Of a stretch of DNA of 64,000 bases, positions 33,311-57,301 are shown one piece after another. A program made the position numbers and the translations under genes. How positions within the stretch are numbered: position 1 is the first letter of the stretch; the number at the start of each line of letters is the position of its first letter. The DNA comes from Dacryopinax spathularia (taxonomy: Eukaryota > Basidiomycota > Dacrymycetes > Dacrymycetales > Dacrymycetaceae). Below the pieces are notes generated by a model. The model had not been told where the DNA came from. It did no database searches and saw only the letters and a program-made list of their open reading frames with translations. Location of the stretch: assembly GCA_037974965.1 (NCBI GenBank), contig JBBPFI010000012.1:806001-870000 (forward strand). The letters are read 5' to 3'.

Positions 33311-33857
33311 CGCAGTCCTGGTCTGAGGAAAGTTTGAGATGCTAGGGAATTGACATGGCTGATTCGAGGAGGTTATGTAGACAGCTTGGGAGGTGATGTT
33401 GGGCTACAGGAGGAATGATCCTCCTGTTCGAGTCGCCTGTTGCCAGCATCGCGCACTGTTGAGGAGGAGGTCCGCGGCATCTCCCGTACGGCGCGATACC
33501 AGCAGATGATGACAGCAGTTTACAGCGGCAGCCTTGGTCCCCAAATTAGGACAGAATCTTAGAGAGCAAGAAACGTTGCATTATTGTAGGACACATAAGA
33601 AAAGCAAGTCTTCATCGTCTAATGAACATCCTAGTCTTGAGTCCGAGATCGTGTTGATGAGGATGCGTTCCTGGACAACGAAGTTGGGAAGGTCTTTACT
33701 GGATGGACGTTTTGATGCCGCACTGCGACCTTCTAAATGGGGACAGCATCGCTTTACGTTGCCTTGATTACGTACACTAGGCGCTGGTAACATATGTCGC
33801 GTAGGGTACTCTCGGGCGCCAATGATAATATGATACACTTCGTCTCATAGCGTACGC
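33311..33857. other. Intergenic region holding the left boundary of the Helitron
   Basis: The stretch runs from the start of dehydrogenase B to the stop of the first element-borne gene. The left end of the Helitron should lie in here, but no TC terminus could be identified without a comparison to other copies. No gene is seen. Confidence 0.4.
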
Positions 33858-34519
33858 CTATGCCTGCGTTTGTCCGATCCCGACTAGTCCTCTCATCTGT
33901 TCTAGCAAGCGATCCTGCTCTTCTTTCTCGGATCTAATTTGCTGAATGGTACGCTCCTGCTTGTCTTTTTCGTCTTTGAGTTGCTTGATGAACTGCGCAT
34001 ATACCAGGTTCGTCGTGGTCAACTCGTGCACGCTTTTCTCGAGCTCGGCTATACGATCCTTCAACTGGGCGACTTCCTCTACTTTCGCAGCGTTATTCTT
34101 ACGCGGTTGTATCCCCTGGCGGGGAGGCTTACGACGGGGGTGCGTAGGCGGCAGAGTAAGAGGCTCGGCGGATGAGTCGTCACCGTTTGTGGACGGTGAA
34201 GCGTGTACAGTAGGGCTGGTTGTATGCGCGTCGTGCTCGGTAAGTCCTTCGTTTTTGGTAGTTTGTCCAGGCTGAGACGTTGACGTATACGCTGCGTCGG
34301 TTGTCGTCTCCTGCGTCACAGCATTGGCACCGCCGTCGTTGTATTTGCGGCGCTTAGGGGAACGACCTCCGTCATCTGAAGCTTGCCGTTTGTTGCGCAG
34401 TTCTTGCGATACGCGGAGGATCATACGCTGGAAGAATATTAGAAGGGCAATGTAATCTGCCGGTGCGTTTGTCTTACGGCCACGTATGCGTCTTCATCAA
34501 ATTCTGAGTCGTTGGGCAT
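33858..34519 (-). CDS. Coiled-coil nuclear-type protein at the left end of the Helitron
   Basis: Two exons (34519-34478 and 34427-33858) encode about 203 residues. Exon 1 gives MPNDSEFDEDAYVA and an intron GTAAGA...CCAG joins RMILRVSQELRNKRQASDD. A basic patch SPKRRKYND could be a nuclear localisation signal. A serine/threonine-rich middle follows, then a second basic patch (PRRKPPRQGIQPRKNN), then a long coiled coil from KVEEVAQLKDRIAELEKSV to about EEQDRLLEQM. It resembles a bZIP in layout, but the basic region lacks the N-x7-R spacing of that family, so DNA binding is not shown. It is transcribed away from the Rep/helicase gene, across a 256-bp shared promoter region. No known family. Confidence 0.7.
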
Positions 34520-34740
34520 AGCGTTTGTCTTAAAAAGCGGTGTGTGTAGAGGACGTGGTGGTATGAGGTTGGAAGGCAGTGACAGTTAAGTGTTGAATTG
34601 TGCGGCATTGTAAGACCGCGGGCTGATACAAGTCATCCACAATCGGAAGAGTCACCCACAGCGTCGCGCGTTGTACCAAGGCGCTGCTAGTCTACGAGAC
34701 CATGCTGTACACCTGTGCGGAAGTGTCTCACGCGCGCTGT

Positions 34741-34747
34741 TATATAA
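34741..34747 (+). promoter_or_regulatory. TATA box of the Rep/helicase gene
   Basis: The sequence TATATAA lies 29-35 bp before the ATG at 34776. Such a short spacing implies a very short 5' leader. It matches the spacing seen at three other genes of the element. Confidence 0.55.
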
Positions 34748-34775
34748 CATTGGCACTTCTGGCCGCTAGCGGACT

Positions 34776-37700
34776 ATGGCCTCTTACGTTTGCACTCTAC
34801 AGGATCGCGCTCGTGTTCTGGGACGAGGTTCGAGCTTCCCAGTTTCTGATTTGAACGCCGGCTATACCTTTCAGCGCGCATACAAAAGCTGCGACGACGT
34901 GGATATGGCGAAGGTCTATGAAGACACCTTACTCCTGCGCGCTGCGATAGGTGAAGTGATCGTCGTTTATAATCACTTCTCGAAGTCGCATTTGCTCGAC
35001 CTGTCGCGTCTAGTCGGTATCGTCTTCACACGCTTCGTGACGAAGGGTACAATGGTCGGCAGTCTTACGCAAGACCGCGTGAAAGACATCTCACTTGTCT
35101 GGCGGTTCAAACTTCGCCGGCGAGAAAGGGTTTATGAAGGACTTCGAGTGGACCCAGCCGTCCTCCATACGCCTCGTGTGCCGAAGAGACATCATGAAGA
35201 TACCGCGGCAGATACAAGGCCCGGCAAGAGGGCTGCTCGCTTCCCTCCAGAGCACGATGAAGACCTCGTGAACTTAATCATTGCCGAATATCAGCAGGCG
35301 ACTAGCCCGACGGCTCTAGAACACGGCGTCTGTGGCAGCTGTGCGGAGCGCAAGAAGTTGCTAGACTTGCGTGCCGTGTCGGTTAATGACTTGGACCTTA
35401 CGCCTTTACAAAATCGACGTATTCCGGCGAACTTGTTACCTACGACATATTCGCTTCCAGCGTACGACTCCGCCATTCTAGATTGCCGGGGTTTAAGTAA
35501 CCCTTGGGTACGTCAAGGCTATTTGTACCTGTGCGCCCACTGCAAGGCGTCGATTGGCAAGGGCGAGCTGCCGCTCTTGGCGCTAGCAAACGGGTTCTAC
35601 TACGCCCACGAGCACGTTCCTCCTGCAGTTTCTGCTGCCTTTTCCGCCGCGACTTTCGTCGATCGCAAGCTCGTCGCGCGTTGCTCGGCTAGCAAAATCT
35701 GCTTCAGGTACTTCGATAATCCGGAAAGCCGATTGTATCGCCGCGGAGTGGATGGAATGCAACGTTATTGCCGGGGCAATGTGCTCATCTTGCCCCAGGA
35801 TAATATCACGCTGCACGACATACTGCCTCCACCAATCGATGACGTGAAGGATAGCTTCGTCGCCGTGTTTGCAAGTCGAGAGCCTCCTACTCCGGAAGTA
35901 CTGCGTCGCTTGGAGCCTCTTAAGGCGAATGCGCGTACCGTGCGAACGATTTTATCTTTCTTGATATCGCAAAATCCAGCATACACTTGCGCGACCGTGG
36001 ACTTCCCCACGGGAACTTCATTCTCTCAAGCTCACTTCGACGCCCTGTTTCCGGAAGGCGAAGGGGACGCGGCCTCCCCGCGTCTGTTCCCTTTCATGGA
36101 AATAGGGCATGTCGCTCTCAGTGAGGCGCAAGTTGCTGCCGAGTCGGATGTTGCCGACAGAAATGGGTTCGCCGACTCCGATGTTGGTGAGCGCGATTTT
36201 TTGATGGAGGCGTCCGGTTATTCCGCAGCGGATCGATCTGCGCAAAGCTATCGGGCCATGAAAGCGGACGCGTTGGCCCACTGCCTCGATAAACAAGGCG
36301 CATTCCTACTCTCGCGCCGAGGTAACCGGGCAGTACAAGACTTGCGGAACGAGTTTACTCTGACGTGGATGTTCCCACATCTCGACCCTTTTGGTCTAGG
36401 AGGATTCGACGATCCTCGGCGGCGCAGGGCTGTGCCTATGTCTAAGCAGCTTTCGCATTTGCTGAATTTGGCAGACGGCCGGTTTCAGTCGGATCCTACT
36501 TTCGCGTTCGTCTTTCATAGCATCTTGCAGAAGCGCCAAAGTCTGCGCGATGCTCTATTCCGCGTCCCGGAGGGCGCGCATGATCGGATCGTGGAAGGGA
36601 TAAAGAATGTAGATGTGGAGATTTTGGTGGATTTGGCGCGGCGATTAGAGGTCGATAAGTGGACGCAAGCTGTATCTGATGAAGAACGTCTTGCTTTCAG
36701 AGTACTCCGACGCATACATATGTTGCGAAAGGACGCACCTGGAAGCGACGCATACAAGACCTGTCGTAGGAACGAGATCCGCGCTCTGATTTACCACTTG
36801 GGCTGTCCGGCACTCTTCGTTACCCTCACGCCGAATGACATAGATGGCCTGCTGTTTCAAATGGCTTTGAAGGGTTATGAAGGCATGGACGACCTTATTA
36901 AGGGTGCGACGAGATCGAGTCGTTTTCAGCGTGCCATAATGGTTGCGGAAAATCCAGCCGCGGTTGCTCGAGTTTTTCACGAGACCATGGAGCGGTTTAA
37001 AACCATAGTCCTGCGTTTCGGTAAAGGTCCTGGACTATTCGGGGTTTGCACCGGCTTCTACGGCATGGTCGAAGCTCAGGGACGGGGTACTTTACATTGC
37101 CACATGTTGATATGGCTCGAAGGTAATCCGTCGCCGGCCGAACTCCGCGACAAGATGGTTGACGAGGAGTACAAGCGCAAGGTACTGGAATGGCTGGAGC
37201 GTTTGATTAAAACCGAACCTCCTGGTACTACCGACGTCATGATAAAGGAAGATCCGCGCGTGCGAAGACCGACGCTCGCTAAAGATGATGTAGATCCGAG
37301 AAGCATACCTGGTCCGTCGATTACTACACTCGCTCCAGATGAATTCCGCGGCGCATTCGAGCGTCATGTGTATGATCTTGTGTGCCGCAACAACTGGCAT
37401 GAGCACAGAGCGGGATGTTGGATACACCTCAAACAGGGTGAAGAGAAATCCGATGAGAAGTGTCGGATGCGTATCGATGGAACCACACGAGCGGTTTCTA
37501 CTATCGACCCCGATACGGGCGCTATTTTACTTCGGCGCCTTCACCCTTGGGTAAATGAATACAACGATGTCATGATGTTCCTTTTCAAGTCGAACATGGA
37601 TATTCAATACATTGGTTCTGGAGAAGGTGCGAAAGCCGCGCTTTTCTACATCACCGACTATATAACAAAGTCGTCTTTGAAAGTGCACGCCGGTATGAGC

Positions 37701-40637
37701 GCGTTGATTTATGCCATCCAGAAAAATCACGATAAGTTCAAAGATAGTCCCGGTTCATCCTCGCAAGCGGAGAGTCGGAGTTTGGTGAACAAAATGGTCA
37801 ACGCCATGATGTCGCGCCAGGAGTTGTCCCACCAACAAGTCATGAGTTACTACGTCGGAGGCGGCGATTGCTATACGTCTCACACATACGCTGTGCTGCA
37901 ATGGGGTCGATTTTCCAGATTAGTCGCCAAGTTAGAGTGCGCCTTACAACCCACCGAGGCGTCTCTGCGCCCGGAGGAAGAAGACGCCGAGGATGTCTAT
38001 CCCGACGAAGGGTACGAAGATGACTTCGTTGGTCGGAAGGCGAACCTTACCCTCAGCATACTAAATGGCGACGTTTCGGCCGCGAACCAATGCCAGGACT
38101 ATCTGTGGCGGCCCTTACTCAGCGCGTTTGAAAAGCTTTGCTTGTATGATTTCGTCGCCACGGTAGTAAAAGAAGTCGTTCCTAAGAACGGCGATCAGGA
38201 TAGGCCGGCGCCCTTGCAGAACACGTTTGAAGACATACGTACGAAGACATTGCGTGGGTCGCTCCAACAGGATCATCCGCAGTTTAAGACCCACTGCCTT
38301 AAGTACCGGCTCCGCCGTAGTGTCCCCGTATTGCTAGGCCCGTCGTTACCAAACAAGGACGCTTCCGACATCGAGAACGGAAACTGGTGTCGTGCTATGC
38401 TCATAATGTTCAAGCCTTGGCGAGTTCTAACAGATCTGAAGCGTGACAACGAGCTATGGACGGAAGCTTTTGACCGCTACGAGTTCCATAGCGAGCACAG
38501 GTCGGTTATGAGGAACATGAATGTCCTTAGGGAGTGTAAAGATGCCCGCGATTCTGACTTGCGTGGCAAGCTACGGGGGCGTCAGTCTATGCAACGCCCT
38601 GAGGAGCCCGCCGACCTCGGTATGGACGAGCTTGCCGACTGTGTTATGATGGACGACGACTTGGGTCATTCCGATCCATACGAAATCAGCGAGTCGCAAG
38701 GCGAGGGAGGAGTCGAAGCAGATATCTATCGCCAGAATCAAGCGGATTGCCTTAACTCCGCAGCGGGGCTGTCAGTACTTATGCGCGACGACCAATCGCT
38801 CGCGCCCTGCATACCAGCGCGCACATCCTTAAGTACTCGGCGTTCTTTACTCTCCGATATAACTCAGCTAAAGCGATATGCCGATGAGCTGAAGGAGTGG
38901 AAAAAAGACAAACGTCCTCAGCGAACCGACGCTAACGGGGCCGTGCAAACTGCCCTTGATACGCACCCGGACGCTTCTATCGCTCGCGTTGTGAGTACCT
39001 CCGCGCCGACTACAACTTCTGAGCCTCGTTCGCTTCCACATGAAGACGTGCAGCTAGCATTCGAAGAAACTGCAAGAGAAAGAGGTCTGAATAGCAATGA
39101 AGAACAGTTACGGGCGCTAAGAATCGTCGCGAACCACCTCAGTGTGTCGCAATCAAAGCAGCTCTTCTTGTACGTTGGCGGAGGTGCGGGTACTGGGAAG
39201 AGTCATCTCATAAAGTGTATCGAGGATTTATTCAGCAAGCTACATATTCGAGACAGTCTCTTACTGAGCGCGCCTACTGGAGCGGCCGCCGTCTTGATAG
39301 GCGGGTATACAATCCACGCCCTTACTCTCTTGCCGTCTCAGCCTCGCAGCAAGCCCAACCTGTCGCTCCTCGATTCCATATGGCGAGCAGTAAACTGGCT
39401 TATTATTGACGAAGTCTCTATGGTCTCCGCTCTCTTTTTACACGAAGTATCGGAGCGCATTTGTATGGCGAAAGGAACGCCCCCGGACGTAGCCTTTGGC
39501 GGCATCAATATCATTTACACCGGCGACTTCGGACAGCTCAAGCCGTTCGGTTCCTTGCCTCTGTATAGCAACCATCTGCTTCGCCAGGTAGGATCGAGAT
39601 TATCCCAGCGTCCTACTGGTCAAGCAGCCCTCAACGGCGCGTTACTATGGCGCTTGCTGGACTCCGTTGTTCTGCTGAAGCGGAACGTAAGACAAGCCGG
39701 AGATAGAAAGTGGGCGAACCTGCTAAGCCGGCTGAGAGTTGGACAAGCGTGGACGGGCAGGGAGTACCGGAATGACGAACAGGTAGGAGACGGGGATAAC
39801 TACGAGGCGTCCGACTATGACGTGCTCTGTAGTCGGCTTCTAGAAACGTTAGGGGGAGATGGCGGGGAGTGCCCATCCGCATTTCAAGACGCTCCGGTTA
39901 TCGTCGCAACAAGAAAGCTACGCAACATGCTCAACATACTGCTCGCTAGAAAACATGCTGCTCGTCTAAAAGAGCCGTGTCACTTGTACTTTGCGCAAGA
40001 TTACCTAAAAGGTTCTCGTATTGAAGGAGAACTCCAGCACCGGCTTTGGAGAGCCGACATCAAAGAAGCGGACTGTCAGCCGTATCTTCCGCTCTTCACT
40101 GGTATGCGCGTGATGCTTACAGAGAATATGGCTATTTCGAAGAATCTGGTAAATGGTACCACCGGGGTTGTTGTCGGAATCCGATACCAAGAGAGCGCGG
40201 ATCATATACGCTTCGCAGACGGCGTTTATGTAGAGATAGAGACGTCGCCAGTACAGCACGACGGCTTGCCGCCGACGATCGTATGCGTTCAGCCGGTCAA
40301 GTCTACTTTTCAGTATACTACGACGGCATTCGACGGAACGACTGTCCAATATGCTATACGCAGATTACAACTACCCATCCTTCCGGCATACAGCTACACC
40401 GATTATAAAAGCCAAGGCCGATCCCTAGAAAAAGCCGTAGTGGATCTCGCAGGGTGCCGTAGCCCACAAAGCGCCTACGTTATGCTGTCTCGCGTCCGCA
40501 CCTTGAAGGGTCTCGCTGTTCTCAGACATTTTACACCTCGGCACATTTATGGGCGTCAGCCTTCAGAGTTGCGGGAGGAGATGAATCGCTTGGCATACTT
40601 AGATGACATGACAAAGACAGACGAGGGAGGGTATTAA
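34776..40637 (+). CDS. Helitron Rep/helicase
   Basis: A single uninterrupted frame of 1953 residues encodes the transposase of a Helitron, which nicks one strand, transfers it and unwinds the element. The N-terminal third has a cysteine-containing region of the kind found in fungal Helitrons (CGSCAERK at about 187; YLYLCAHCKASIGKGELPLL at about 250, DUF6570-like). The Helitron-like N/Rep domain spans about 660-980. It has the HUH metal site in QGRGTLHCHMLIWL (about 767-780) and the paired catalytic tyrosines in YITDYITKSSLK (about 957-968). The Pif1-type helicase starts near 1440: Walker A YVGGGAGTGKSH (about 1464), Walker B LIIDEVSM (about 1542), YTGDFGQLKPFG (about 1580) and the C-terminal VMLSRVRTLKGLAVL (about 1902). 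All motifs are intact, so the protein may be active. A TATA box lies 35 bp upstream. Confidence 0.95.
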   Translation: MASYVCTLQDRARVLGRGSSFPVSDLNAGYTFQRAYKSCDDVDMAKVYEDTLLLRAAIGEVIVVYNHFSKSHLLDLSRLVGIVFTRFVTKGTMVGSLTQDRVKDISLVWRFKLRRRERVYEGLRVDPAVLHTPRVPKRHHEDTAADTRPGKRAARFPPEHDEDLVNLIIAEYQQATSPTALEHGVCGSCAERKKLLDLRAVSVNDLDLTPLQNRRIPANLLPTTYSLPAYDSAILDCRGLSNPWVRQGYLYLCAHCKASIGKGELPLLALANGFYYAHEHVPPAVSAAFSAATFVDRKLVARCSASKICFRYFDNPESRLYRRGVDGMQRYCRGNVLILPQDNITLHDILPPPIDDVKDSFVAVFASREPPTPEVLRRLEPLKANARTVRTILSFLISQNPAYTCATVDFPTGTSFSQAHFDALFPEGEGDAASPRLFPFMEIGHVALSEAQVAAESDVADRNGFADSDVGERDFLMEASGYSAADRSAQSYRAMKADALAHCLDKQGAFLLSRRGNRAVQDLRNEFTLTWMFPHLDPFGLGGFDDPRRRRAVPMSKQLSHLLNLADGRFQSDPTFAFVFHSILQKRQSLRDALFRVPEGAHDRIVEGIKNVDVEILVDLARRLEVDKWTQAVSDEERLAFRVLRRIHMLRKDAPGSDAYKTCRRNEIRALIYHLGCPALFVTLTPNDIDGLLFQMALKGYEGMDDLIKGATRSSRFQRAIMVAENPAAVARVFHETMERFKTIVLRFGKGPGLFGVCTGFYGMVEAQGRGTLHCHMLIWLEGNPSPAELRDKMVDEEYKRKVLEWLERLIKTEPPGTTDVMIKEDPRVRRPTLAKDDVDPRSIPGPSITTLAPDEFRGAFERHVYDLVCRNNWHEHRAGCWIHLKQGEEKSDEKCRMRIDGTTRAVSTIDPDTGAILLRRLHPWVNEYNDVMMFLFKSNMDIQYIGSGEGAKAALFYITDYITKSSLKVHAGMSALIYAIQKNHDKFKDSPGSSSQAESRSLVNKMVNAMMSRQELSHQQVMSYYVGGGDCYTSHTYAVLQWGRFSRLVAKLECALQPTEASLRPEEEDAEDVYPDEGYEDDFVGRKANLTLSILNGDVSAANQCQDYLWRPLLSAFEKLCLYDFVATVVKEVVPKNGDQDRPAPLQNTFEDIRTKTLRGSLQQDHPQFKTHCLKYRLRRSVPVLLGPSLPNKDASDIENGNWCRAMLIMFKPWRVLTDLKRDNELWTEAFDRYEFHSEHRSVMRNMNVLRECKDARDSDLRGKLRGRQSMQRPEEPADLGMDELADCVMMDDDLGHSDPYEISESQGEGGVEADIYRQNQADCLNSAAGLSVLMRDDQSLAPCIPARTSLSTRRSLLSDITQLKRYADELKEWKKDKRPQRTDANGAVQTALDTHPDASIARVVSTSAPTTTSEPRSLPHEDVQLAFEETARERGLNSNEEQLRALRIVANHLSVSQSKQLFLYVGGGAGTGKSHLIKCIEDLFSKLHIRDSLLLSAPTGAAAVLIGGYTIHALTLLPSQPRSKPNLSLLDSIWRAVNWLIIDEVSMVSALFLHEVSERICMAKGTPPDVAFGGINIIYTGDFGQLKPFGSLPLYSNHLLRQVGSRLSQRPTGQAALNGALLWRLLDSVVLLKRNVRQAGDRKWANLLSRLRVGQAWTGREYRNDEQVGDGDNYEASDYDVLCSRLLETLGGDGGECPSAFQDAPVIVATRKLRNMLNILLARKHAARLKEPCHLYFAQDYLKGSRIEGELQHRLWRADIKEADCQPYLPLFTGMRVMLTENMAISKNLVNGTTGVVVGIRYQESADHIRFADGVYVEIETSPVQHDGLPPTIVCVQPVKSTFQYTTTAFDGTTVQYAIRRLQLPILPAYSYTDYKSQGRSLEKAVVDLAGCRSPQSAYVMLSRVRTLKGLAVLRHFTPRHIYGRQPSELREEMNRLAYLDDMTKTDEGGY

Positions 40638-41064
40638 GCAGCTTCTCTGCTTCCGTAGGGTTCCTGTGCCTGAATGTAAAAACCGCCGAGTAAAGACGGA
40701 TGTATGCGCACCAGCCTATGTCTTGCTCAGCTGGGGTATTGTCCACCGCCTTCTCTTGATTGAAACGCACAGCTTCCTGTATCAAAGGGGGCCCATACGG
40801 AATTGCTCGCAGGATCTATCTCGCCGTGCTTCTTTTTCTGGACGACACACTTGGTACAGCCTTGCCAGACCATTAGCCAGTCGCAGATCTTACTCTCCAC
40901 CGAGCACCCTCGCCTGTTACAGCTTCGCCATAGCTTTAGAAGCACCGCCTGTCTACGCGAATCACCGCCTTCACCACCGCTTTGTAACTGCCTTCTTAGC
41001 ACTGCCATGGCTCCCAGGACATATAAAGGTTCGCCAGTTTTTTGCCATGGCGTATAGCGTCCAA
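40638..41064. other. Spacer between Rep/helicase and the next element gene
   Basis: About 430 bp with the 3' end of the Rep/helicase gene and the promoter of the following gene, including the TATA box at 41022. No gene of its own is seen. Confidence 0.5.
41022..41028 (+). promoter_or_regulatory. TATA box that favours ATG 41065
   Basis: TATAAAG lies 25 bp before an ATG at 41047 and 43 bp before the next in-frame ATG at 41065. With transcription starting about 30 bp after a TATA box, the first ATG would lie outside the mRNA, so 41065 is the likelier start. Confidence 0.5.
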
Positions 41065-42286
41065 ATGGCTAAAACGAGTAACAAGAGAAAGAGCATCTCT
41101 CCATCCAACGAGGATGTGCTAGCGACGCGCCAGCGGTAGGTCTCTGAACGATTCGCTCCGCACTATACACATCCTTACATGCCACAGGCGCAATCCTGAT
41201 ACTTCTGACGAAGTGGTACCCACTCTTCAACGTGAAGATACGAACAATACGCCTGTAAACGGTCGCCTGTTCAAACCTCAGCTGGATAGGGTCAATGCGT
41301 CTCCCTCTTCTCACAGTGAAGATACCATACAATCCCTCTCGCCGCATGAACTCGAGCACGCAGACAGGAACGTGAGCTCCCTCCAAGGCGACCAGTCTGA
41401 TGAAGCAGAGGCCGATATACTCCTAGGCTCTCCCAAGACTTCCGGCTTAACTGGCAAAGGCGTTCAGTTAGACATGGGCAAGTATGACGAGGAGCTACAA
41501 AGGCAAGTCGCGTCATGCAAAGGCACGGCGCAATTTCTTATCTTTCCATAGGCGCATCGTTGCCATGCGTCAGTACAGCGATAAAGCGCGCGCCGTCTAC
41601 TACGTCACGCAGTTCCCGTTGGATCTGCGCTTCGGATACAAGCAGGCCGTGAACATGTCGAACTACTTAGTACGCAGCGACAATTCCGCCGCATTAGTGT
41701 GGATTGTTGGCCACGTCGCAGCCGCTCAGTTACAAGACGAAACTAATGGGACCTGGCCAGACTCAGTTTACATCAGCGTGAAGCCCTTGACTCGGGAAGA
41801 TACTAAAGCCGCTACGCGACTGTGTAATGAATACGCCAAACCGCAGCTTGGTACGGATACGCTGGTTGTGAACTGCTCAGCCTCGACTGAAACGCTCATT
41901 AGATCTTGATTTAAACCCGTTCGGCACTATTCTTGCAAGCCGTTTCCAAAAGGGCTACAAGTCGCCTAAACCCGTACGAATAGCAGAGGCTACTGGACTA
42001 AACTGACGATGTTAAGCAGGCCGCCGAATTCAGAGACGTCTATGATGCTCGAGAAGGCATGAAGAAAAAGCGGGAGATGAAGCGCTACCCTTGCACTAAG
42101 ATTAAAAAGAACGATCTCATCCTCATGGAATGTCGCGTCAAGAAAAGGTTCGACGCTCGTGATAGCGAAGACGACGCTAGGAAGGACGATGCCCCTTTTA
42201 GGATAAGCTTCTATCTAAACGCGCTTTACCTACTGGCGGAGGGCACAGAAGAGGATGACGAAGACGGCGTGGAGTACAACTTCTGA
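41065..42286 (+). CDS. Novel Helitron-borne protein 1 (340 residues, five exons)
   Basis: No family recognised. Five exons, 41065-41135, 41188-41502, 41552-41850, 41903-41973 and 42020-42286, join in frame into about 340 residues. The intron at 41503-41551 begins GCAAGT and ends CATAG. It is a GC-AG intron, and only this splice keeps the frame, giving ELQRRIVAMRQY. The first 120 residues are polar and disordered, with a basic start (MAKTSNKRKS). The ordered part contains ARAVYYVTQFPLDLRFGYKQ, LVWIVGHVAAAQLQDE, DLDLNPFGTILASRFQKGY and YPCTKIKKNDLILMECRVKK, then FRISFYLNALYLLAEG and an acidic tail EGTEEDDEDGVEYNF. The last part has the alternating pattern of a small beta domain. Position inside the element suggests a transposition accessory role; this is inference. 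Confidence 0.72.
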
Positions 42287-42334
42287 CAGACTCTTAAGAG
42301 TAGCATGCATTGCGACTACGTTGAGATACAAGGC

Positions 42335-43795
42335 TCATTCGTCCAATATAAAGGTAACGTCCCTGTGGAACAGCGGGTAGAGATCCGAGGTGGGAACTAG
42401 CTCTTGTGTAACATAGTTACCCGCAATCAATTGCTCTCTTATCCCTTCCACTTCGCTGAGTCCTATGTCACCGAACTCCATGCAGGATGCCTGTACACTG
42501 CTGCTGCGCCGTAGAACCAGTTGAGGATACCGCGCGCCCAGACTAGGTTGCGAAGGATTCGAGGTCGTTCGATACTCTTCCACAACTAAGTAGCTTGCTT
42601 GCTGCCGACCTCTACCGACGCAAATCGTACCCGTCGCAAATGGCCCAGTTATCCAAGAACGCACGTCAATGGCGTGCACGTCGCAACTATAATCGGTCGA
42701 GATCGAATAGTAGATGGACACGGGTACTAAGCAGCCCGCGGGTTGCGTCGCCGTTACACAGAGGGCTTGTGTGGGTACCTCGGAGAATGGGACAGGTGCC
42801 TGTCAGTGGTAAGCTGTCTAACGTGTAGATTGAGCGTCGCACTTACCTCTCGCCGCTGCGGTGGGCCCCATGCAATCTTAAGAGTTGGCACGACCTCGTA
42901 CCAGATGTCATGGCCGCCTTCGTTCTACCAGCCTGATAAGCGCCGATTATGATATCTCGCACTTTAGTCACCTCCACTGTTCCCTTTCGCTCGTCCCTCA
43001 GCGCCGTTGTTATGAGAGCTGCTACCATACTGTACGTGCGCAGAAAAGTTAGAGATCAACCCTTAGTAGTGACCGTTCGTGGACAAAGACGCTCAAGTGA
43101 GTAATAGGGGCTCACACTCGCATTGCACCCTGTAATACTTCCGCACTTCGCCCCCGTGTCTTTAGCCGTATCTGCGCAATGAGATTAAGACGTGCATGTC
43201 GTAAGCCTGCCCCATGTGATATCAAGGCGACTCTCCACACCCTTCTACACTAGCGACCATTCCGTTAACAAATCTGCTGCGAAGTTAAGTTCCCCTCAGC
43301 GTTGTTGTTCTCCAGCGTACCCTGTAACCAGCATATCTACGACGGTCCTGTCAATATTGTCCATATGGACCCAAACTAGGCTCCCTCCTCTAGCGACCCA
43401 TTTAGTCACCACTATCGGTCCCTTCCATACCTTGTCCGTCAGCTCTAACAGTGCAATATTGATATGGCCCCTGTTCTGTTCTGCATACTCGACCTTAAAG
43501 AACCATTTCAGCTTCACGTCCGTGCCTGGAATGTACTGCAGCCGTATTTGGTAAGCTGAGCTCCACTTCGGAATCACATCGGTGACTTTCGGCACCAGAA
43601 TTACTTCCAACGCCGCACTCAGGGTATGAATGCCTCGAATCTTCTCTATCTCTCCGCGACTGTGATCAGGACGATACACTACGGCACGCACTCGATCCTC
43701 ATCCTGCTTGGTCAATCACGGCAAACTATACACTGCGACACATTACTCACCGCGCATGGAAAGCTAAGGCACTCGCACTCGTAGCGGTTCGGCAT
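42335..43795 (-). CDS. Novel Helitron-borne protein 2a (minus-strand paralogue)
   Basis: No known family. ATG 43795 follows a TATA box (43831-43838) and starts with MPNRYECECLSFPCA. An intron GTGAGT...GCAG joins DEDRVRAVVYRPDHSRGEIE, and the exon runs on through IRLQYIPGTDVKLKWFFKVE and VWKGPIVVTKWVARGG to about 43333. The 3' exons are also firm: NEGGHDIWYEVVPTLKIAWG (near 42915), then APVPFSEVPTQAL and IYYSISTDYSCDVHAIDV, ending DLYPLFHRDVTFILDE with the stop at 42335. One or two small exons between about 43330 and 42960 could not be placed with certainty. The C-terminal part aligns with the plus-strand gene ending at 44870: YLVVEEYRTT against YHVIVEHRTT, and PTSDLYPLFHR against PQSSMYNILHR. 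The two genes are therefore head-to-head paralogues. Confidence 0.6.
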
Positions 43796-43830
43796 CCTGT
43801 ATTATCTTGCCGCTTCTGTTACTGGCCGGT

Positions 43831-43838
43831 CTTTTATA
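43831..43838 (-). promoter_or_regulatory. TATA box of novel protein 2a
   Basis: On the minus strand TATAAAAG lies 36-43 bp before the ATG at 43795. The same octamer precedes the gene at 45184 with nearly the same spacing. Confidence 0.55.
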
Positions 43839-44090
43839 CAGCGCCCAACTACACACTCGCCCTTGTCTAAAGCTGTGCGGACGGTCTTGTCTCTGTTCCA
43901 TATCATGTCGCACCCGACATGATGGACGCATTCTCTGTCCACACCCTGTCATACGTTACGGCTACAATTGATTCACGAGACAATGCGGTGAGTACGTCCT
44001 CCTCCTCTCGGCGGCTTCCAAGCGCCGCTGTTATCCATCTTTCCCCATAAATACTGTTTGAGCCGCGACAGGATCTCTGCAGCTAATACT

Positions 44091-44870
44091 ATGGCGGCTC
44101 CTGACTCACCGCCTTTATACAGCAGAGGGCTACCTATGCTGGACGTGGCTGTCCCAATCCAAAATGAGCATGACGCTGTGCGCACTCTCCGTCTCCCACT
44201 AGGAACGAAAGCTAAATCCTGCGCCAGGCTCAAACCACTGGTCTCATTCGCTGCCGTGTGGTGGAAACCATCGTAATTTTACCCTCAAATGCACCGACCC
44301 CTTTGGTAAAGTCGACTTTACCCCATATTCCCGTAGAGTTCTCACGCGGTTTCTCAGCCAACCTTTCGCCACACGCTTATGCGCCTGATAGGCCTCCTCG
44401 TCCCTCTGGACGCCGCTCCTCTCCTCGTACAGGTGCCCTTCAAGTTTACCTTGACCTCCCGGAACTCCATGCGTCTTTACGGCCTTGCTATTCAAGACCT
44501 CATCCAAGGCCCATACGCGGAATACCGAGGAGTACACAAGTCGCAGGATGAATATACCGGCGCCAGCCGCAAACAGGCCTATCACGTGATCGTGGAACAT
44601 CGCACTACTAAACCAGTACCACGAATTAAAAACTCCGCTGCATTAAAAACGCCAGCACCAACACTCATGTCGGAGTGGTGTGGCGCGGTTCTCGTATTTC
44701 GATACATGCGCTGGGAGAAAGTTGACGACTCTTGCATAGACTACGGCAATGTGGTAACGGGGGACGTCGTCGACATCCTAAACATGCTCGGTAAAGGGCT
44801 GCCGACGAAGGAGATTCTTCCGCAGAGTTCTATGTATAATATCTTGCACCGCAGCTTCTACACAGCTTAG
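44091..44870 (+). CDS. Novel Helitron-borne protein 2b (plus-strand paralogue)
   Basis: No known family. The firm part is the last exon: from about VPFKFTLTSRNSMRLYGLAI, through IQGPYAEYRGVHKSQDEY, AYHVIVEHRTTKPVP and LVFRYMRWEKVDDSCIDYGN, to PQSSMYNILHRSFYTA and the stop at 44870. This matches the C-terminal half of protein 2a. The start is uncertain. ATG 44091 opens a frame (MAAPDSPPLYSRGLPML...) that would need an intron between about 44256 and 44340 to reach the conserved part. It may be a full gene with an unclear 5' end or a 5'-decayed copy. The two paralogues face away from each other around about 43.9-44.1 kb. Confidence 0.5.
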
Positions 44871-45137
44871 TTTACTACGCATCGCAATACTGTACGGCCT
44901 CAGGTACAGCGTGAAATGAGACTTCTGAGTACAGCGTGAGTAATGAGACTGTTCTACCAAGCATCACCACTTCCTCCACAGCCCTACAGCTCCTCCTTAT
45001 TATACCTGCGTGTCTACCCAAAACAAACCGTCCTCCGCGAGTCTCAGACGAACTGCCACAATCCTACTCTCCCTCTTGTACGCACCGCCTTCCTCTCACA
45101 GGCGAATACAACCGCCAGACTATAGGTCTGCAGCAGA

Positions 45138-45145
45138 TATAAAAG
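45138..45145 (+). promoter_or_regulatory. TATA box of novel protein 3
   Basis: TATAAAAG lies 39-46 bp before the ATG at 45184, matching the octamer and spacing of the minus-strand gene at 43795. Confidence 0.55.
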
Positions 45146-45183
45146 CGTACCACTTACGAAGTTAGAGAGTCATCAAACTCCTC

Positions 45184-45913
45184 ATGCCTTCTGCTACCTT
45201 CCATACCACAACGCCTACTTCTCCTACCTCCCGGTTGACCGTCACGTTGACTCCTATCATGTTCGTCCTTCCTCTACTTTCTCGTCATTTCCATTGTAGC
45301 TCACTAATCTACAGCACGACGCCTATCTGTAATTTAACGCCATGCACAGACTGCGCCCCTTGGCTCGCTCATCTGGGCAAATCACTGGACTTATTGACAC
45401 TTCCCTTTCCTAATAGCGCCGCGTGAGACTACCTAATTCTCCCTATCCCACTTTACCTAACACCAACGCAGGCGGCCTGCCTCAGCCTCGGCTGTCCTAT
45501 CTCCGCTCAAACTCACCGAGGGTATAAACGTCGACAAGAAATGCTACACGCCGCCCCTTATACCAAGTGACTATCCGTCGCCCACTGGCTCGCCCTTCAG
45601 CCTGGATATCAACAGCGGCGACCATCCGGCGCCAATTCCATCCTGGAACATCCCGAGCTTCTCCGATGCTGATACCTTGCCACGCCAGTCCGACGGCGAC
45701 ATGCGCTTGACTCCCTCAACCTCGCTTGCCACTACAGCCACAGGGACGGAAGCTGCTCTCATGGACGTCGCGCTCTCCCTCACTAACACAGTCGAGGTGC
45801 TTCGTAGCATTGAGAGGCGCCAAGAGCTTCTGATGAAGCGGACCCGTAAAGCTTTACGCTACAACAGGAAAGTGTCACGTAAATTGCTGCGGTTGTACAA
45901 AAGGGGCCTCTAA
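45184..45913 (+). CDS. Novel Helitron-borne protein 3 (basic C-terminal helix)
   Basis: Two exons (45184-45422 and 45472-45913; intron GTGAGA...GCAG) encode about 226 residues in one frame. The N-terminus is threonine/serine/proline-rich (MPSATFHTTTPTSPTSRL), followed by a short cysteine-containing hydrophobic stretch (PICNLTPCTDCAPWLAHL). The middle is proline-rich (PPLIPSDYPSPTGSPFSL). The C-terminus is a long helix with a strongly basic end (VEVLRSIERRQELLMKRTRK, then ALRYNRKVSRKLLRLYKRG), suited to nucleic-acid or protein contact. No family recognised. A good TATA box precedes it. It ends about 200 bp before the RPA-like gene on the same strand. Confidence 0.62.
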
Positions 45914-46109
45914 TTAGAGTGCACACACTTTAGAACATGCATGACTAGCTTGTACTCATATAGACCAAATGACATGCACCCTTCCACGGAAGCAAATCAC
46001 GGGCGCTATTGTGTGACTTGATACAAGCGGAGTCTGAATATCGCCACCTAAAGCCAACCGCCCTAGCTCGCGCATCTTTCCTTCCTACCACCACGCCCCC
46101 CCTAACACA

Positions 46110-48573
46110 ATGTCGTATCTCAAGCTTACCGCTGGCGCCTGCCGCAACATGCTCATCGGCCAGGTTGCCGAATATTCGTGCATCGTACAAGTGCAGAAAG
46201 TTGTCCCGTACCACTTCAAAATGGGCGACGATGTCAAGATCAATCAATACTTGTATGCGCGCCGTCATTTATTTTGTTGCTCTACTTACTTACCTTCCAG
46301 CAGCTTGGAGCTCAGCGATGGTACCAACTATATCGTCTGCACTCTACATCCCGACCTCTACTCCCTCGTCGAAAGAACAGAAGACGAAGTGGCAAAAGTC
46401 AAGCAGTTCAGTATGGTTCGCGTTGAGGGTTTCGTCAGGACCGTAACCTTAGGAGGTCGCATGTGCGTATCATATATGCACTGTTCTGCAGACAACCTGA
46501 TCCTCTTCCAGCACCGTCATCGTCACCGAGCTGAAGGTACTCAAGGATATGACGGCATTGAAAGGAAACCCGACCTTGTTGACGCTGACCGAACAAAACC
46601 CTACCCATACCACGTCTACGTCTCGTCAGCGTACTGCTTCGTCGGGTAAACAGCTTACGCACATCCCTTTTAACGCGGCTTTGCTTCCCGACGATGGTGC
46701 CGACAAACCCGCAACTTATTGTATCATTAAGAAGGCCGCGAGCAATCCTATTCCCAAGGGATCTCGTGTCCACAAACGTTACCGCATTGCCGACATCAAG
46801 AGCACCACCACGAGGTAAGCTCTTCGGACATCAACACACATACCTGGCCAGTAACCATATCACGCCGCAGATTCTGGGTCGTAGCTCGTTTGACTCGCAA
46901 ATCTACCAAATCAGAATATAGCAGCGATAAGGGCTCAGGCGCTCGCCAGCTGCTTACTCTGCACGACGAATCAGTCAGTCTCTTTTTTCTTACTCGCGCT
47001 TCACTTACTCACGCGGCTTTGACAGGGCGAAATAGGTGCTGTCGTATGGAACTCCGCTGTGGAAGCCAGCGACAAAATGGTCGTGGGCAAAGTACATGAT
47101 AGCTCAGGTCTGTCGCCTCCCTGCTAACAACCCTCTAGGTATATGCACTCCATAATGGATCCACCTTGCCTCGCAATGCAGCAACAAACCCGATCCCTCA
47201 TTCCGCCCAGCTCAATTTCAATCCGGGCGCGAGATTCGAAGAGGTATGAGGCAAAGCTTTCCTTAACCTTGCAACTCTGACGACAACCAAGGTTGCGGAC
47301 GATGGTTCCATCCCACGCCATTGGTTCAACGCCATCGATCTTGATCGCGTAGCGCATCTGCGCGAGGGCGATTATTTCGGTGCGCATGATATATGCACAG
47401 CGAATGACACATTGTTTGACCTGAGCTTAGATATTCGCGCCATCATACACTCCGTTGGAAAAGGCGTCAAGTTCAAGCCAAAGTCGGGCAAGGTACTCAT
47501 CACGTTATTCTCACGCGTCTTCCCCTCACGCCTTCGTCTAGAAAGATACGCCTACCAGTTTCCTTGACGTCTGCGTTGTAGACAAATCGCTTGCCATGCT
47601 GAGGATTTGCGTCTGGCAAGACTTCCGCGCAGACTTCGAAGGACAGGAAGGGCGCGCTGTCTCTATTAAAGGACTGAAGTGGGATTATCATATGGGTGCC
47701 AGTGGCATGACTAAGACGGGCAGAACTATCATCTGGTACGACGACGAGTCCCCAGCGCACAAAGAGCTTTGCGATTGGTAAGCAGCTTCTGCCCGCGCTC
47801 GTTTTCGCCTCCAACAAATAATAGGTACGCGAGGCAGAAGACAACCACCTTCCACCTTCTTTCCGCCCTCTTTACCGCATCCGGTAACAAGCCGGCCGAC
47901 GCCACCGACCCCGGCGAATGCGTTACTATCCAGGACGTCGAAGAACGTGGTTTAGGCAAGCGCGAAGAGCCCGACACTTTCGACCTCATTGCAGATATCG
48001 AGGTCATCTCAACGGCGGAGGTCGGATATTACGCCTGCCGTGATTCGGAATGCCAGCGTCGCGCCAAATACCTTGAGGACCAGAAGATATGGTCCTGTGA
48101 CTCATGTGGCACTACCTTCCGCAACCCACGCTTCCTGTACGTGTCGTCGGTTACAACAACTGGCAAGCCTAATATATGCGCAGGTTCCACCTCTCCATCC
48201 GCTTGGATGATGGTAGTCCCAATACTGTTGTCGCTACATCTTTCGATGATGTCGGCAGAAGCCTATTCGGCGATCTTGCTATCACCCTCCACCGACTCCA
48301 AAACAGCGACAAGGTAATTGTAGTCTCGCGACCCTAGTCCGTATCTAACTCGCGTACTAGGACGAGGACGTAGAAACCTTCGAAGCCTACCTCGATAAAG
48401 TGAAGGGCCGCTATCGCGTCACTGTCGATGCGCAGACGACCGTCAACGAAGTCCCGAATGGCCATGTAAGTCATGCCGTCTATACAACTCCGCCGCTAAT
48501 CCTCCCACAGACGTACGTCAACGAAAGCTGGATCATTTCCAAGATGGTCCGCGATGGTCCTGACACCGACTGA
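46110..48573 (+). CDS. RPA70-like single-strand DNA-binding protein carried by the Helitron
   Basis: This is a large-subunit replication protein A homologue, which coats single-stranded DNA. Twelve exons join in frame into about 642 residues: 46110-46252, 46301-46462, 46512-46814, 46871-46973, 47026-47091, 47139-47243, 47292-47492, 47542-47777, 47825-48136, 48184-48313, 48361-48465 and 48511-48573. Domains in order are an N-terminal OB fold (LTAGACRNMLIG, LELSDGTNYIVCTL; about 1-105), DBD-A (RFWVVARLTRKS, LLTLHDESGEIGAVVWN; about 200-330), DBD-B (DTPTSFLDVCVVDKS; about 360-430) and DBD-C with a zinc ribbon (YYACRDSECQRR, WSCDSCGTTF; about 490-640). The four zinc cysteines are intact. Length and layout match cellular RPA70, so this is no fragment. 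Plant Helitrons are known to carry RPA-like genes. The likely role is protection of the displaced strand in transposition. Confidence 0.88.
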
Positions 48574-48613
48574 GCCTCAACCGCGTCCTTTACGAACTGC
48601 TTCCACTCTTCTC

Positions 48614-49358
48614 ATGCACTGTACAACACGCACGGTTACCAATGACGACCCGAATACCACTCCCCGGCTTGAAGAATTCTTTGTACCGAATGCCCCTCAT
48701 GTAATCCCACGGACTACTCATGATAATGGATGCCGTTTACTGTATACTGGTGTGAGTCCCAGGCGTCGAACTAACCCTTTCTGCAAGCAGACATACCCCT
48801 ACCTGGCTTAAGGTGCGTATCATCATGATCGCCACCGAATATAGTACTAACTACATCTTCGCAGATACACTCAACATTCCTCCTACTATCCTTCCACGAT
48901 ATCGTTTCACATGCTCACCTTCACGTTCGGCAATCCAAGTTTGACTCTACCGCCTCGCCCACCGCATCCTTCCGCCCAGCCTAAATATGTGTGTACGCCC
49001 TAATACTAGCAACCGCATTATTTACTAATGCTTCATAAAGGCACGCCCTTCATTCCTACTATTCGACTTTCTAACCGAAGTCGCTTTCCCTTATCCCGTG
49101 CGCATTTTATTCTTGCGTAATTATACTGGCGACGCTGACGTAATTGCATCCGCTTCCGCGTCCAGGATAATCACGTGCACATTCATGACTCTCCTCCGCG
49201 TCGAGGAAGGACCCTACTCGACATTGCTAATTGCCTCCGCCCTCTCTGGGCGCTCGTTCTACTCACCAACGCCGTCTTTCCTCGCACGACCTCTCTCGAC
49301 TCTTCAACAACGACATCTATACCTCTCGGGACAAGTTACAACTTCTAGCAATTCGTAA
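48614..49358 (+). CDS. Novel Helitron-borne protein 4 (199 residues)
   Basis: No family recognised. Four exons, 48614-48749, 48791-48812, 48865-48988 and 49041-49358, stay in frame through three introns, one flanking a 22-bp micro-exon. This supports a real gene. An earlier in-frame ATG at 48554 overlaps the last codons of the RPA-like gene in another frame, so I prefer 48614. The protein starts MHCTTRTVTNDDPNTTPRL. Its ordered parts include RLEEFFVPNAPHVIPRTTHD, FHMLTFTFGNPSLTLP, and FLLFDFLTEVAFPYPVRILF, and the end is serine/threonine-rich. It starts only about 40 bp after the RPA-like stop, so the two may be co-regulated. Confidence 0.58.
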
Positions 49359-49410
49359 GTACTAACGTTCTCCGTTTAATTAAACAAAAACTGACCTGCT
49401 CGTACAGCAT

Positions 49411-50098
49411 ATGCCTGCTGTTACGCGTTCTGGAGGACGCGGTGGCGGACGTGGCGGCAAGGTACGCATATACGTCCTTCTCGTACAACTTCGACTAATC
49501 TTATAACAGAAAGGCGGACGTAATCGCCCGGCTAGCACCTACAAGGCGTCTATAAAGAACGGAGGGTCGACTAAAGCAGCTCCTAAAGGCGACAAGGGCG
49601 AAACGGAAGAGGAAGATGCAATGGTACGTCTCGCAGCACTTTCACCCCTTTCCACATTCTCTAACCAACCGTTTCTTACACAGGACATCGATCCACCGGC
49701 CGAAGATACTACAGCCGCCAGTACTGAGGTGCGCCCATACTTTGTCGCCAGTTACTTAGCTAACGGAGCGTTTCTAGACGCATACAGCTAACCCCGGCGA
49801 TCATACTACTACGACGTCCACGAACATGGCGACGGACGACCCCATCGTCCTTACCAGCGGCGCCTCGACGACTAGCACCAACGTCAACTTCGACAATCTC
49901 GTCGGTGCTAGTACTGCCCTTCTTCGCGACAACCAGTCGCAGCTCGGTATCCTCGTCTTGCAGAACCTCGATCATATCCGCCAACTCGAAGCCGACCTGG
50001 ACGCTGCGAACGACGAAGTCGTCCTCGTTAGAGCTCGCCACGATCGTCTGCAGGCCGCCTACGATAAACTCCGCGAGGAACTTCAGCGCAGGCACTAA
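49411..50098 (+). CDS. RGG-motif and coiled-coil protein at the right end of the Helitron
   Basis: Four exons, 49411-49461, 49510-49623, 49684-49728 and 49778-50098, give 176 residues without frame loss. The N-terminus is an arginine-glycine tract (SGGRGGGRGGKKGGRNR), typical of RNA or single-strand DNA contact. Then come a lysine-rich stretch, an acidic run (KGETEEEDAMDIDPPAED), a threonine-rich linker and a C-terminal coiled coil (NLDHIRQLEADLDAANDEVV to YDKLREELQRRH). The short second, third and first exons follow domain borders. No known family. A coiled-coil protein at the opposite end of the element (33858-34519) has a similar plan without clear sequence identity. Confidence 0.62.
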
Positions 50099-50725
50099 TG
50101 TCGCCCAGTGCCTACCGTTATACAACACTCAGTCGCCTGTACCAGTTCGCTACTTCAAGCTCTCGCCGTAGATTACATTACGAGTCCTTTTGTACCTAGG
50201 ATTAGTTACAAACTACCGCGTGTAATGCCATACAGTACCCTGTCCGCTTACTTAAGCATCTCTTATTAAGCATCTCTTACACTTAAGCATCTCTTATTAA
50301 GCATATCTTACTTAAGCAGCGTTGTCCAGGCCTGCGCGGAGCGGTTGACTATTCCAGTTGGTGACGCGCCAATTCCCGGACCCTTTCAGAATCCCGCCGA
50401 ACGCGCAGCTAATGCACAGCCTCTCCCCCTTATGCTACCCTTTACTGTACGCTGAGCCGATCGCCGGGTTTACGGTCACCATTCAATTTCACGGCTCAGC
50501 ACTGCGACGCCAACACACCGCACCGCTTTCAACCACTGAAGTGACAGAGGCGAGCTGGGCTTGTCCTTTGACGACCGACGACGAACTAAGGATCACTGTC
50601 GACTTACCTTTCTACTGCTATTACTTGCTAGACTCTTGCTGGTGGACTAGACTGGAATTGAGGCTACCGTACTGTATCTAGCTCAGGGCTTGTAACGAAG
50701 AAGAGGAGAGGCAAGATGGCACGAG
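50099..50725. other. Intergenic region with the right boundary of the Helitron
   Basis: The stretch holds the 3' end of the last element gene, the direct repeats at 50247-50319 and, to the right, the promoter of the host membrane-protein gene. The element end (CTRR) lies somewhere in it, but several CTRR tetramers are present and no clear hairpin selects one. Confidence 0.45.
50247..50319 (+). repeat. Short direct-repeat array near the right end of the Helitron
   Basis: The motif TTAAGCATCTCTTA and close variants occur four times within about 70 bp, followed by a partial TTAAGCAG. Spacing is 14-17 bp. Location just inside the presumed right end suggests subterminal binding sites or a slippage product; the first reading is inference. 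It is not a CRISPR array: units are too short and have no unique spacers. Confidence 0.65.
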
Positions 50726-56364: not shown

Positions 56365-57301
56365 TGTTGATGCTCTTGTCTCAGCGAGTTGTCTGTGATG
56401 TTGTTGTTGTTGTCTGGTGTTGCAGCGAGGTCGTTCGAATCGTCTCGCTGTTGTAGATGAACAGGAGAGAACGAACAGCTGTAAGCCAGCTCCAGCAGCC
56501 CCATAAGCCCCGCACACCATCAGTCCCCTCACATGCCCTTCATCCCTCACACCATCCGAAGTGTGGACCTCCACGCCGAGTAGGCCGAGCACCACCACCG
56601 GGAAGTGTGTGTGCCCCATCTCGCAATCGTCCCGTGCCCGGAGGAATGATAGCCAGTCGGGTCATGTGACTATACATATGTGCGGGGGATCTTCGGCCCG
56701 CTGGACCTTCTGATCAGTCTGCTCATGTCGCTCCGGTCAGAACTGAACCAGATCACAGAGATATGACATTGTATTTCTCCATTGTGTCTGGCCGACATTG
56801 CAGTTGATGATGGTAAGAAAAGTTATTGCACTCCTGGCTGAGTATGCCACCCGGATCCTACTCATTCTCACCCACGGCAGGCAAATAACGCTCATGTTCT
56901 TCGATCCCGACATCACGTCTGCTTATCCGCCATTGCACATTATTTGAAGGACATCCATGCACTCAAGCTCAACAATAGCGCCAGGCGAAGACTTACAGAC
57001 CTATATGTAGCAGTAGTGAGGAATCATACTATCATCACAGCCATCGATCAAACTCATTCAATTTGATTGAGGTATGTCGACAGCGAGATGTTCCAAAGAT
57101 AATGCAGCCGCTTGCGATCAGAAAGGCTCGAGAGTTTAGAAAAATGTGTACGTTTGTTTAGTAGATCAGGTGGACAATGGTCAATGAGCGAGCACTGGAA
57201 GCTTGCTTGCTTAGGCCTGTGTAAGCAGTGTTAAGAGCTTTGATTTGAGTGCGACGGAAGCGCCAGTACGCACAGTTCGAGACAGAAACCCCTCCTCGAG
57301 A
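56365..57301. other. Intergenic region
   Basis: About 940 bp between the SMP-30 gene start and the 3' end of the F-box/LRR pseudogene. No supported gene. Small frames show no domain. Confidence 0.5.

What the first reader, a model, noticed from the sequence alone, without database searches (positions are those of the whole stretch)
33858..50319. A roughly 16-kb Helitron that carries its own RPA70 and a set of unknown genes
An intact 1953-residue Rep/helicase is followed by eight other gene models before ordinary host genes resume. Seven of them belong to no family I know. Most have in-frame introns, so they are genes rather than chance frames. A rolling-circle transposon that brings a nickase/helicase, a strand-coating protein and several dedicated accessory proteins would be a near self-sufficient replication system. 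Autonomous Helitrons usually have one or a few genes. The seen part is the gene order and intact frames; joint mobility is inference.
Basis: partly seen in the sequence, partly recalled or inferred. Interest (0 to 1): 0.87.

Follow-up and report, generated by a model that had tools for sequence, protein, structure and literature searches.

The report
Eight-gene Helitron in a fungal genome
This stretch is one complete 16.7-kb rolling-circle jumping element that carries, besides its Rep/helicase, its own RPA70 and several genes of unknown family, most of them long conserved, so its machinery looks larger than the one or few genes usual for such elements.

Summary
The finding holds in substance. 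Window 33669-50351 (16,683 bp) is one mobile unit: two other copies, 99.91% and 99.08% identical, stop at the same bases inside unrelated flanks. Three relatives with Rep only 57-63% identical keep the ends, size (17.4-17.7 kb) and gene order. Ends are Helitron2-like: an 11-bp asymmetric terminal inverted repeat, with T beside every end examined. Rep keeps its catalytic motifs. Rep, C, D, E and RPA70 stayed protein-like across mostly saturated synonymous divergence; A, F and H are weaker. New: gene C lies downstream on the same strand at 23 of the 24 Rep loci scored in this genome; a profile of it found only unnamed Calocera proteins. D and E are paralogues. Most likely this is a Helitron2-like element with a multi-protein transposition machine: Rep/helicase nicks and unwinds, RPA70 coats the strand, C is a dedicated partner. 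Joint mobility is shown; protein roles are inferred.

The parts
33669..50351 (+). Complete element, 16,683 bp, flanked by T on both sides
   Evidence: Two other copies (99.91% and 99.08% identical) break off at the same bases in unrelated flanks
33670..33680 (+). 5' asymmetric terminal inverted repeat CCTGGACAACG, 1 bp from the 5' end; can pair with 33681-33692 as a short hairpin
   Evidence: Inverse of 50320-50330; hairpin weak here
50320..50330 (+). 3' asymmetric terminal inverted repeat CGTTGTCCAGG, 21 bp from the 3' end
50334..50351 (+). Conserved 3' terminal motif GCGCGGAGCGG(T/A)TGACTA
   Evidence: In five other elements; also at one 3' end of the C12:293 kb relative, and with one extra T at its other end and in the C4 relative
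33858..34519 (-). Gene A: predicted coiled-coil protein, 203 aa, exons 34478-34519 and 33858-34427
   Evidence: Models; 12-27% identity among copies: weak support
34776..40637 (+). Rep/helicase, 1953 aa, no intron
   Evidence: Pfam; HCH at 774-776, YITDY at 958-962 and Walker A at 1468 in 4 of 4 divergent elements
41047..42286 (+). Gene C: 346 aa, five exons; unknown family, companion of Rep genome-wide
42335..44038 (-). Gene D: about 432 aa, eight exons, N-terminal half uncertain; last exon 42335-42799 is a paralogue of E
44379..44870 (+). Gene E: 163 aa (possibly with upstream exons from 44091)
   Evidence: 49-58% identical in three divergent elements
45184..45913 (+). Gene F: 226 aa, two exons, with a conserved C-x4-C-x2-C-APWLA motif
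   Evidence: Motif in 4 of 4 divergent elements (tblastx); the rest weakly conserved
46110..48573 (+). Gene G: full-length RPA70, about 633 aa, 12 exons
   Evidence: Pfam Rep_fac-A_C 1.6e-14, PDB RPA70 1.4e-21; the first splice acceptor is uncertain by 3 bp
49411..50098 (+). Gene H: 176 aa, four exons, basic N-terminus, C-terminal coiled coil by eye
   Evidence: 29-40% identical among copies: moderate support
50247..50318 (+). 31-bp tandem repeat array just before the 3' inverted repeat
   Evidence: one unit fewer in the C9 copy

Best explanation
A complete, recently mobile Helitron with Helitron2-like ends that encodes a multi-protein rolling-circle machine. Shown: the 16.7-kb block moves as a unit; Rep has its catalytic motifs; Rep, C, D, E and RPA70 have been kept as proteins in divergent elements. 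Inferred: Rep nicks at the T junction of the 5' end, its helicase peels off one strand, the element's own RPA70 coats it, the C protein acts with Rep as a dedicated partner (ssDNA binding or end recognition), and replication stops at the 3' signal, where the 3' inverted repeat can pair with the 5' one. D/E, F, A and H are taken to be lineage-specific helpers rather than cargo.
For: Three colinear copies with common ends, 15 and 122 mismatches over 16.7 kb. Window against C9 copy: no coding stop, no coding gap; 75 substitutions in 12,420 coding bases (0.60%) against 47 in 4,263 non-coding (1.10%; Fisher p 0.0016); 38 synonymous and 36 non-synonymous codons in all. Divergent relatives share ends, length and order. 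Rep, C, D, E, RPA70 in four divergent elements: pN/pS 0.26-0.63 against 1.00-1.08 for re-paired codons, synonymous distance saturated in 22 of 30 pairs; in all five genes the C1 and C7:1028 kb elements are the closest pair. Gene C beside 23 of 24 scored Rep loci, same strand, 0.4-7.3 kb downstream. C and Rep identity to the window copy rank together (rho 0.85, 16 loci). RPA70 at 13 of the 24, in two arrangements.
Against: No expression, circle or protein data; no empty site. A, F and H are too divergent for a firm test (12-40% identity, pN/pS 0.60-0.90). In the recent comparison F, G and H each show 4 non-synonymous to 2 synonymous changes: few events, but no sign of constraint. H in the C1 relative holds two stops in my model. 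RPA70 was not found at 11 of the 24 scored Rep loci, and C was missed at one (C1:1089186), so RPA70 is not indispensable to the lineage. One search scored 24 of 57 first-look candidates, so further Rep loci, with or without C, may exist. C gave no known family or fold; ssDNA binding is a guess. The C-Rep correlation is not corrected for shared ancestry.
Confidence: 0.8

Rival explanations
1. A simple Rep-only Helitron that recently captured a run of host genes as passengers, as maize Helitrons do.
For: Helitrons are known for gene capture; A, F and H diverge fast; Pleurotus Helitrons carry one to four 'captured' genes, some of unknown function (PMC4289320, passages).
Against: The same gene order is in elements whose synonymous sites are mostly saturated; D and E matched nothing outside elements in this genome at E up to 0.1; the models are whole genes with conserved introns (for C); C accompanies Rep at 23 of 24 scored loci.
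Confidence: 0.08
2. Core machine plus cargo: Rep, C and RPA70 serve transposition, while D, E, F, H and A are a long-kept cargo that does something else, such as evading host silencing.
For: Only C is nearly universal; D and E were found at six of the 24 scored Rep loci, all of one subgroup. Some fungal Helitrons carry a TET/JBP gene thought to counter methylation (PMC12730594, passages).
Against: No domain in D, E, F, H or A points to such a role.
Confidence: 0.3
3. A segmental duplication or nested composite of several transposons, not one element.
For: One relative (C12:293132-304970) does have doubled 5' and 3' ends.
Against: Seven elements on five contigs share the same kind of end pair with T beside each end, and outside the element the three near-identical copies do not match each other in the stretches compared.
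Confidence: 0.02

Closest known systems
Helitron2 group (Bao and Jurka 2013, PMC3627910; passages read)
   Same: Asymmetric terminal inverted repeats, 5' copy 0-2 bp from the end and 3' copy about 20-30 bp in; 5' hairpin over the repeat; 5' T.
   Different: No clear 3' hairpin in this copy; seven accessory genes, where Helitron2 is summarised as encoding a single Rep/helicase frame (PMC4067079), although Helitron2 elements with one extra gene (Fanzor, PMC3627910; TET/JBP, PMC12730594) are reported.
FoHeli elements of Fusarium oxysporum (PMC5148889; passages read)
   Same: Fungal, Helitron2-like ends; FoHeli3 has one unknown gene upstream of and opposite to the transposase, the position of gene A here.
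   Different: About 5-11 kb; no RPA-like gene; [quoted passage not shown]
HELPO1 Helitrons of Pleurotus ostreatus (PMC4289320; passages read)
   Same: Basidiomycete Helitrons with unknown genes downstream of the Rep.
   Different: AT target and CTRR-type ends; one to four genes that differ between subfamilies; the authors report no RPA domain in the RepHel frame.
Helentrons and the proto-Helentron of Phytophthora (PMC4067079; passages and sections 11 and 16 read)
   Same: Rolling-circle elements with extra genes; Helentrons can carry RPA; the proto-Helentron is about 14 kb with several genes; Helentrons prefer T tracts.
   Different: Helentron Rep carries a C-terminal AP endonuclease, absent here; the proto-Helentron inserts between A and T and carries a SET-domain gene.
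RPA-bearing plant Helitrons (PMC4683698; seen in search listings only)
   Same: Carry a gene for an RPA-like single-strand-binding protein.
   Different: None of the other genes found here is mentioned in the abstract start that I saw.

Membership tests
Helitron superfamily | HUH Rep domain with catalytic tyrosines fused to a PIF1-type helicase | tested here: met
   Helitron_like_N and PIF1; HCH, YITDY and Walker A in 4 of 4 divergent elements; PIF1 chains and Helraiser matched in the helicase part. Naming YITDY as the catalytic pair is recalled.
Helitron superfamily | No target-site duplication | tested here: met
   No duplicated flank beyond a single T in the six copies printed
Helitron superfamily | Transposition through a circular rolling-circle intermediate | not testable with these tools
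   No reads or bench work
Helitron1 (canonical) | CTRR 3' end and insertion between A and T | tested here: not met
   Ends GACTA; T precedes 8 of 8 5' ends and follows 9 of 9 3' ends examined
Helitron2 | Asymmetric terminal inverted repeats, 5' one 0-2 bp from the end, 3' one about 20-30 bp from the end | tested here: met
   11 bp; 1 bp and 21 bp
Helitron2 | 5' hairpin that includes the 5' repeat | tested here: inconclusive
   Of six different 5' ends folded, two are strong (C8 element z -4.2; inner 5' end of the C12:293 kb relative z -5.1) and four, the window's included, no better than shuffles
Helitron2 | 3' hairpin downstream of the 3' repeat | tested here: not met
   Window 3' end folds worse than its shuffles (z 1.9); the one relative folded has a 3-bp stem (z 0.3)
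Helitron2 | Rep clusters with Helitron2 in a tree | not tested
   No reference Rep set was loaded
Helentron | AP endonuclease domain at the C-terminus of Rep | tested here: not met
   No such Pfam match in 1953 aa at E up to 1
RPA70 family (gene G) | OB-fold DNA-binding domains plus the C-terminal domain | tested here: met
   Rep_fac-A_C, tRNA_anti-codon and REPA_OB_2; aligned to residues 41-563 of a 616-residue RPA70 chain

The most novel reading that the evidence does not exclude
These elements form a deep lineage of rolling-circle transposons, so far seen only in Dacrymycete-like fungi, whose transposase is not one protein but an obligate pair, Rep/helicase plus the gene C protein, repeatedly fitted with its own RPA70 and further helpers: a near self-sufficient replicon.
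Probability: 0.45. Interest if true: 0.82.

Novelty: new variant of a known kind. Interest (0 to 1): 0.68.

Why it matters
Helitrons are usually explained by a single Rep/helicase that borrows the rest from the host. A family in which eight genes travel together, five of them under long-term protein constraint, and in which one unknown protein stays with Rep at nearly every locus scored, gives concrete candidates for the missing factors of Helitron replication and integration. It also warns that genes filed as 'captured' in fungal Helitrons may be working parts.

Tried and rejected
Structure prediction of E from four sequences gave mean pLDDT 31.9 and was set aside. Prediction of C could not be run. 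PDB profile searches gave nothing credible: C from 5 sequences best E 0.081, D/E best 1.1, C from 16 sequences best 0.53. Profile comparison of C with D, E, F, H, A and RPA70 showed no relation, so kinship of C with RPA is not supported. PHROGs matches of C members (best 2.2e-4, in 2 of 16 members) were not followed. Protein database search: gene C alone, none at E up to 1; its 16-row profile, six Calocera proteins; the E profile, none. Joined flanks of six copies: no recognisable interrupted gene. Ab initio chaining in L029 and the C12:293 kb relative ran neighbouring genes together; only pieces resembling C, RPA70 and coiled coils were used. Alignments A5 and A7 mis-set exon fragments and were not used. 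Locus L008 was first read in the wrong orientation; its gene C rows were garbage and are left out, and its 5' end was re-read. Gene C rows dropped: L008 and L035 (masked bases) from then on; also L034 and L043; 16 of the 21 rows went into the profile; 16 of 17 listed loci had data. The Rep and C loci were merged from 33 and 57 matches by hand.

Full report
What is there. The window lies in a 29.2-Mb genome of 24 contigs. Its Rep/helicase has 33 matches there, which I merged by hand into 24 loci; the tool scored 24 of 57 first-look candidates, so this is a lower bound. Two loci, on C7 and C9, are near-identical. Aligning the window with them gives one unbroken block each, 33665-50353 at 99.91% and 33668-50352 at 99.08%, and nothing else. 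The ends resolve to 33669 and 50351, with T on both sides. So Rep and every gene up to 50 kb have moved together, recently.

Ends. The 5' end reads TCCTGGACAACG; CGTTGTCCAGG, the inverse of its last 11 bases, ends 21 bp inside the 3' end, which reads GCGCGGAGCGGTTGACTA. T precedes 8 of 8 5' ends examined and follows 9 of 9 3' ends (the C12:293 kb relative has two 3' ends, both counted). Because the T is constant, I cannot tell a T of the element from a T of the target. The layout matches the definition of Helitron2 (PMC3627910, passages read) except for the 3' hairpin. Of six different 5' ends folded, two form a strong hairpin over the repeat and four, the window's among them, do not beat shuffles.

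Divergent relatives. Elements on C1 (1,310,664), C7 (1,028,504) and C5 (454,977), Rep 63, 62 and 57% identical, are 17,585, 17,687 and 17,409 bp long, share the ends and are colinear. Protein-to-genome alignment places all seven accessory genes at the same positions and strands. That method was given each region and is bound to place something, so for the weak genes A, F and H it is not independent proof. For Rep, C, D, E and RPA70 the evidence is firm: amino-acid identity 33-67% with pN/pS 0.26-0.63, against 1.00-1.08 when codons are re-paired at random, while the synonymous distance is saturated in 22 of 30 pairs. A (12-27%), F (21-29%) and H (29-40%) have pN/pS 0.60-0.90. F keeps a C-x4-C-x2-C-APWLA motif in 4 of 4 elements.

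Recent constraint. Between the window and C9 copies there are 75 substitutions in 12,420 coding and 47 in 4,263 non-coding bases, no stop, and all 31 gap columns are non-coding. By gene the picture is mixed: Rep 18 synonymous to 17 non-synonymous, D 6:3, C 3:2, E 2:0, A 3:2, but F, G and H 2:4 each. The gaps fit the loss of one unit of the 31-bp array at 50.25 kb.

Gene C. Searching the genome with C gave 57 matches at E up to 0.1, merged by hand into 25 loci. At 23 of the 24 Rep loci there is a C on the same strand, its match 0.4-7.3 kb downstream of the Rep match; C1:1089186 (37% Rep) has none. Two C loci (C14:955604, C5:1827867) have no scored Rep match nearby; an unscored Rep there is not excluded. 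In nine of the more divergent loci 2.8-7.3 kb lie between the two matches, which I could not read. The core aligned from 21 rows is clearly one family; in 14 loci compared the first core intron falls at the same column and phase, the second in 12. C and Rep identity to the window copy rank together (rho 0.85, 16 loci; some Rep identities are from partial matches). A 16-row profile found six proteins at E up to 1 in a database of 5.77 billion, all hypothetical proteins of Calocera viscosa or C. cornea, so the host is probably a Dacrymycete (inference). No Pfam or PDB family was found. The repeated 'GDLVVLE.R.R...F.L.AV' ending reminds me of OB-folds, but profile comparison with the element's RPA70 shows no relation; the idea is untested.

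RPA70. G is a complete RPA70. It is on the Rep strand in six elements and on the opposite strand, 2-5 kb downstream of Rep, in seven others: 13 of 24 Rep loci. The two sorts are 24-25% identical over about 565 columns. The likely host gene at C2:1634 kb (my guess) is 25-26% identical to either over its main match, 38% over one 60-residue piece. Separate acquisition is therefore possible but not shown.

D and E. The last exon of D and E are related (profile E 1.1e-13; direct match 33% identity). Both were found at six of the 24 Rep loci only.

Mechanism. Rep nicks at the T junction and, with its helicase, frees one strand; the element's RPA70 coats it; C works with Rep; the two inverted repeats pair to mark the stop. 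The last step is the proposal of Bao and Jurka for Helitron2. Everything beyond joint mobility and conservation is inference.

Novelty. Eight searches of the open-licence paper library, for Helitron2 with RPA, fungal Helitrons with accessory genes, Dacrymycetes Helitrons, multi-gene Helitrons and related wording, showed no element of this make-up among the titles and abstract starts listed; the lists were capped, and most subscription journals and Repbase are outside the library. RPA in Helitrons, Helitron2 ends in fungi, and unknown genes beside fungal Rep genes are each known. The combination, its long conservation and the near-constant companion C are, as far as I could see, new.

Noticed in passing
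G000 C12:293132-304970 (loci L027, L028, L030): A relative with two tandem 5' ends 42 bp apart, two 3' ends 363 bp apart and a Rep matched only from residue 563; looks like a composite or deleted copy, with gene C and an opposite-strand RPA70.
   Followed up: partly
G000 C14:955604 and C5:1827867 (L038, L045): Two gene C copies without a scored Rep match nearby: solo remnants, a host-adopted gene, or beside a Rep that one search did not score.
   Followed up: no
G000 C2:1459 kb, C1:2278 kb, C2:97 kb, C9:169 kb, C8:1126 kb: Further RPA70-like reading frames away from any scored Rep locus; three share the same 134-aa frame length, as a repeat family might.
   Followed up: no
window 50247-50318: 31-bp tandem repeat directly before the 3' inverted repeat, one unit fewer in the C9 copy; may be a replication-end feature.
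   Followed up: partly
L029 and the C12:293 kb relative, between gene C and RPA70: The second subgroup seems to carry coiled-coil genes in the place of D, E and F; seen only inside run-on ab initio models.
   Followed up: partly
window 55834-56619 (-), 15975-16922 (+): Ordinary host-type frames elsewhere in the window: SMP-30/gluconolactonase-like and dienelactone-hydrolase-like.
   Followed up: no
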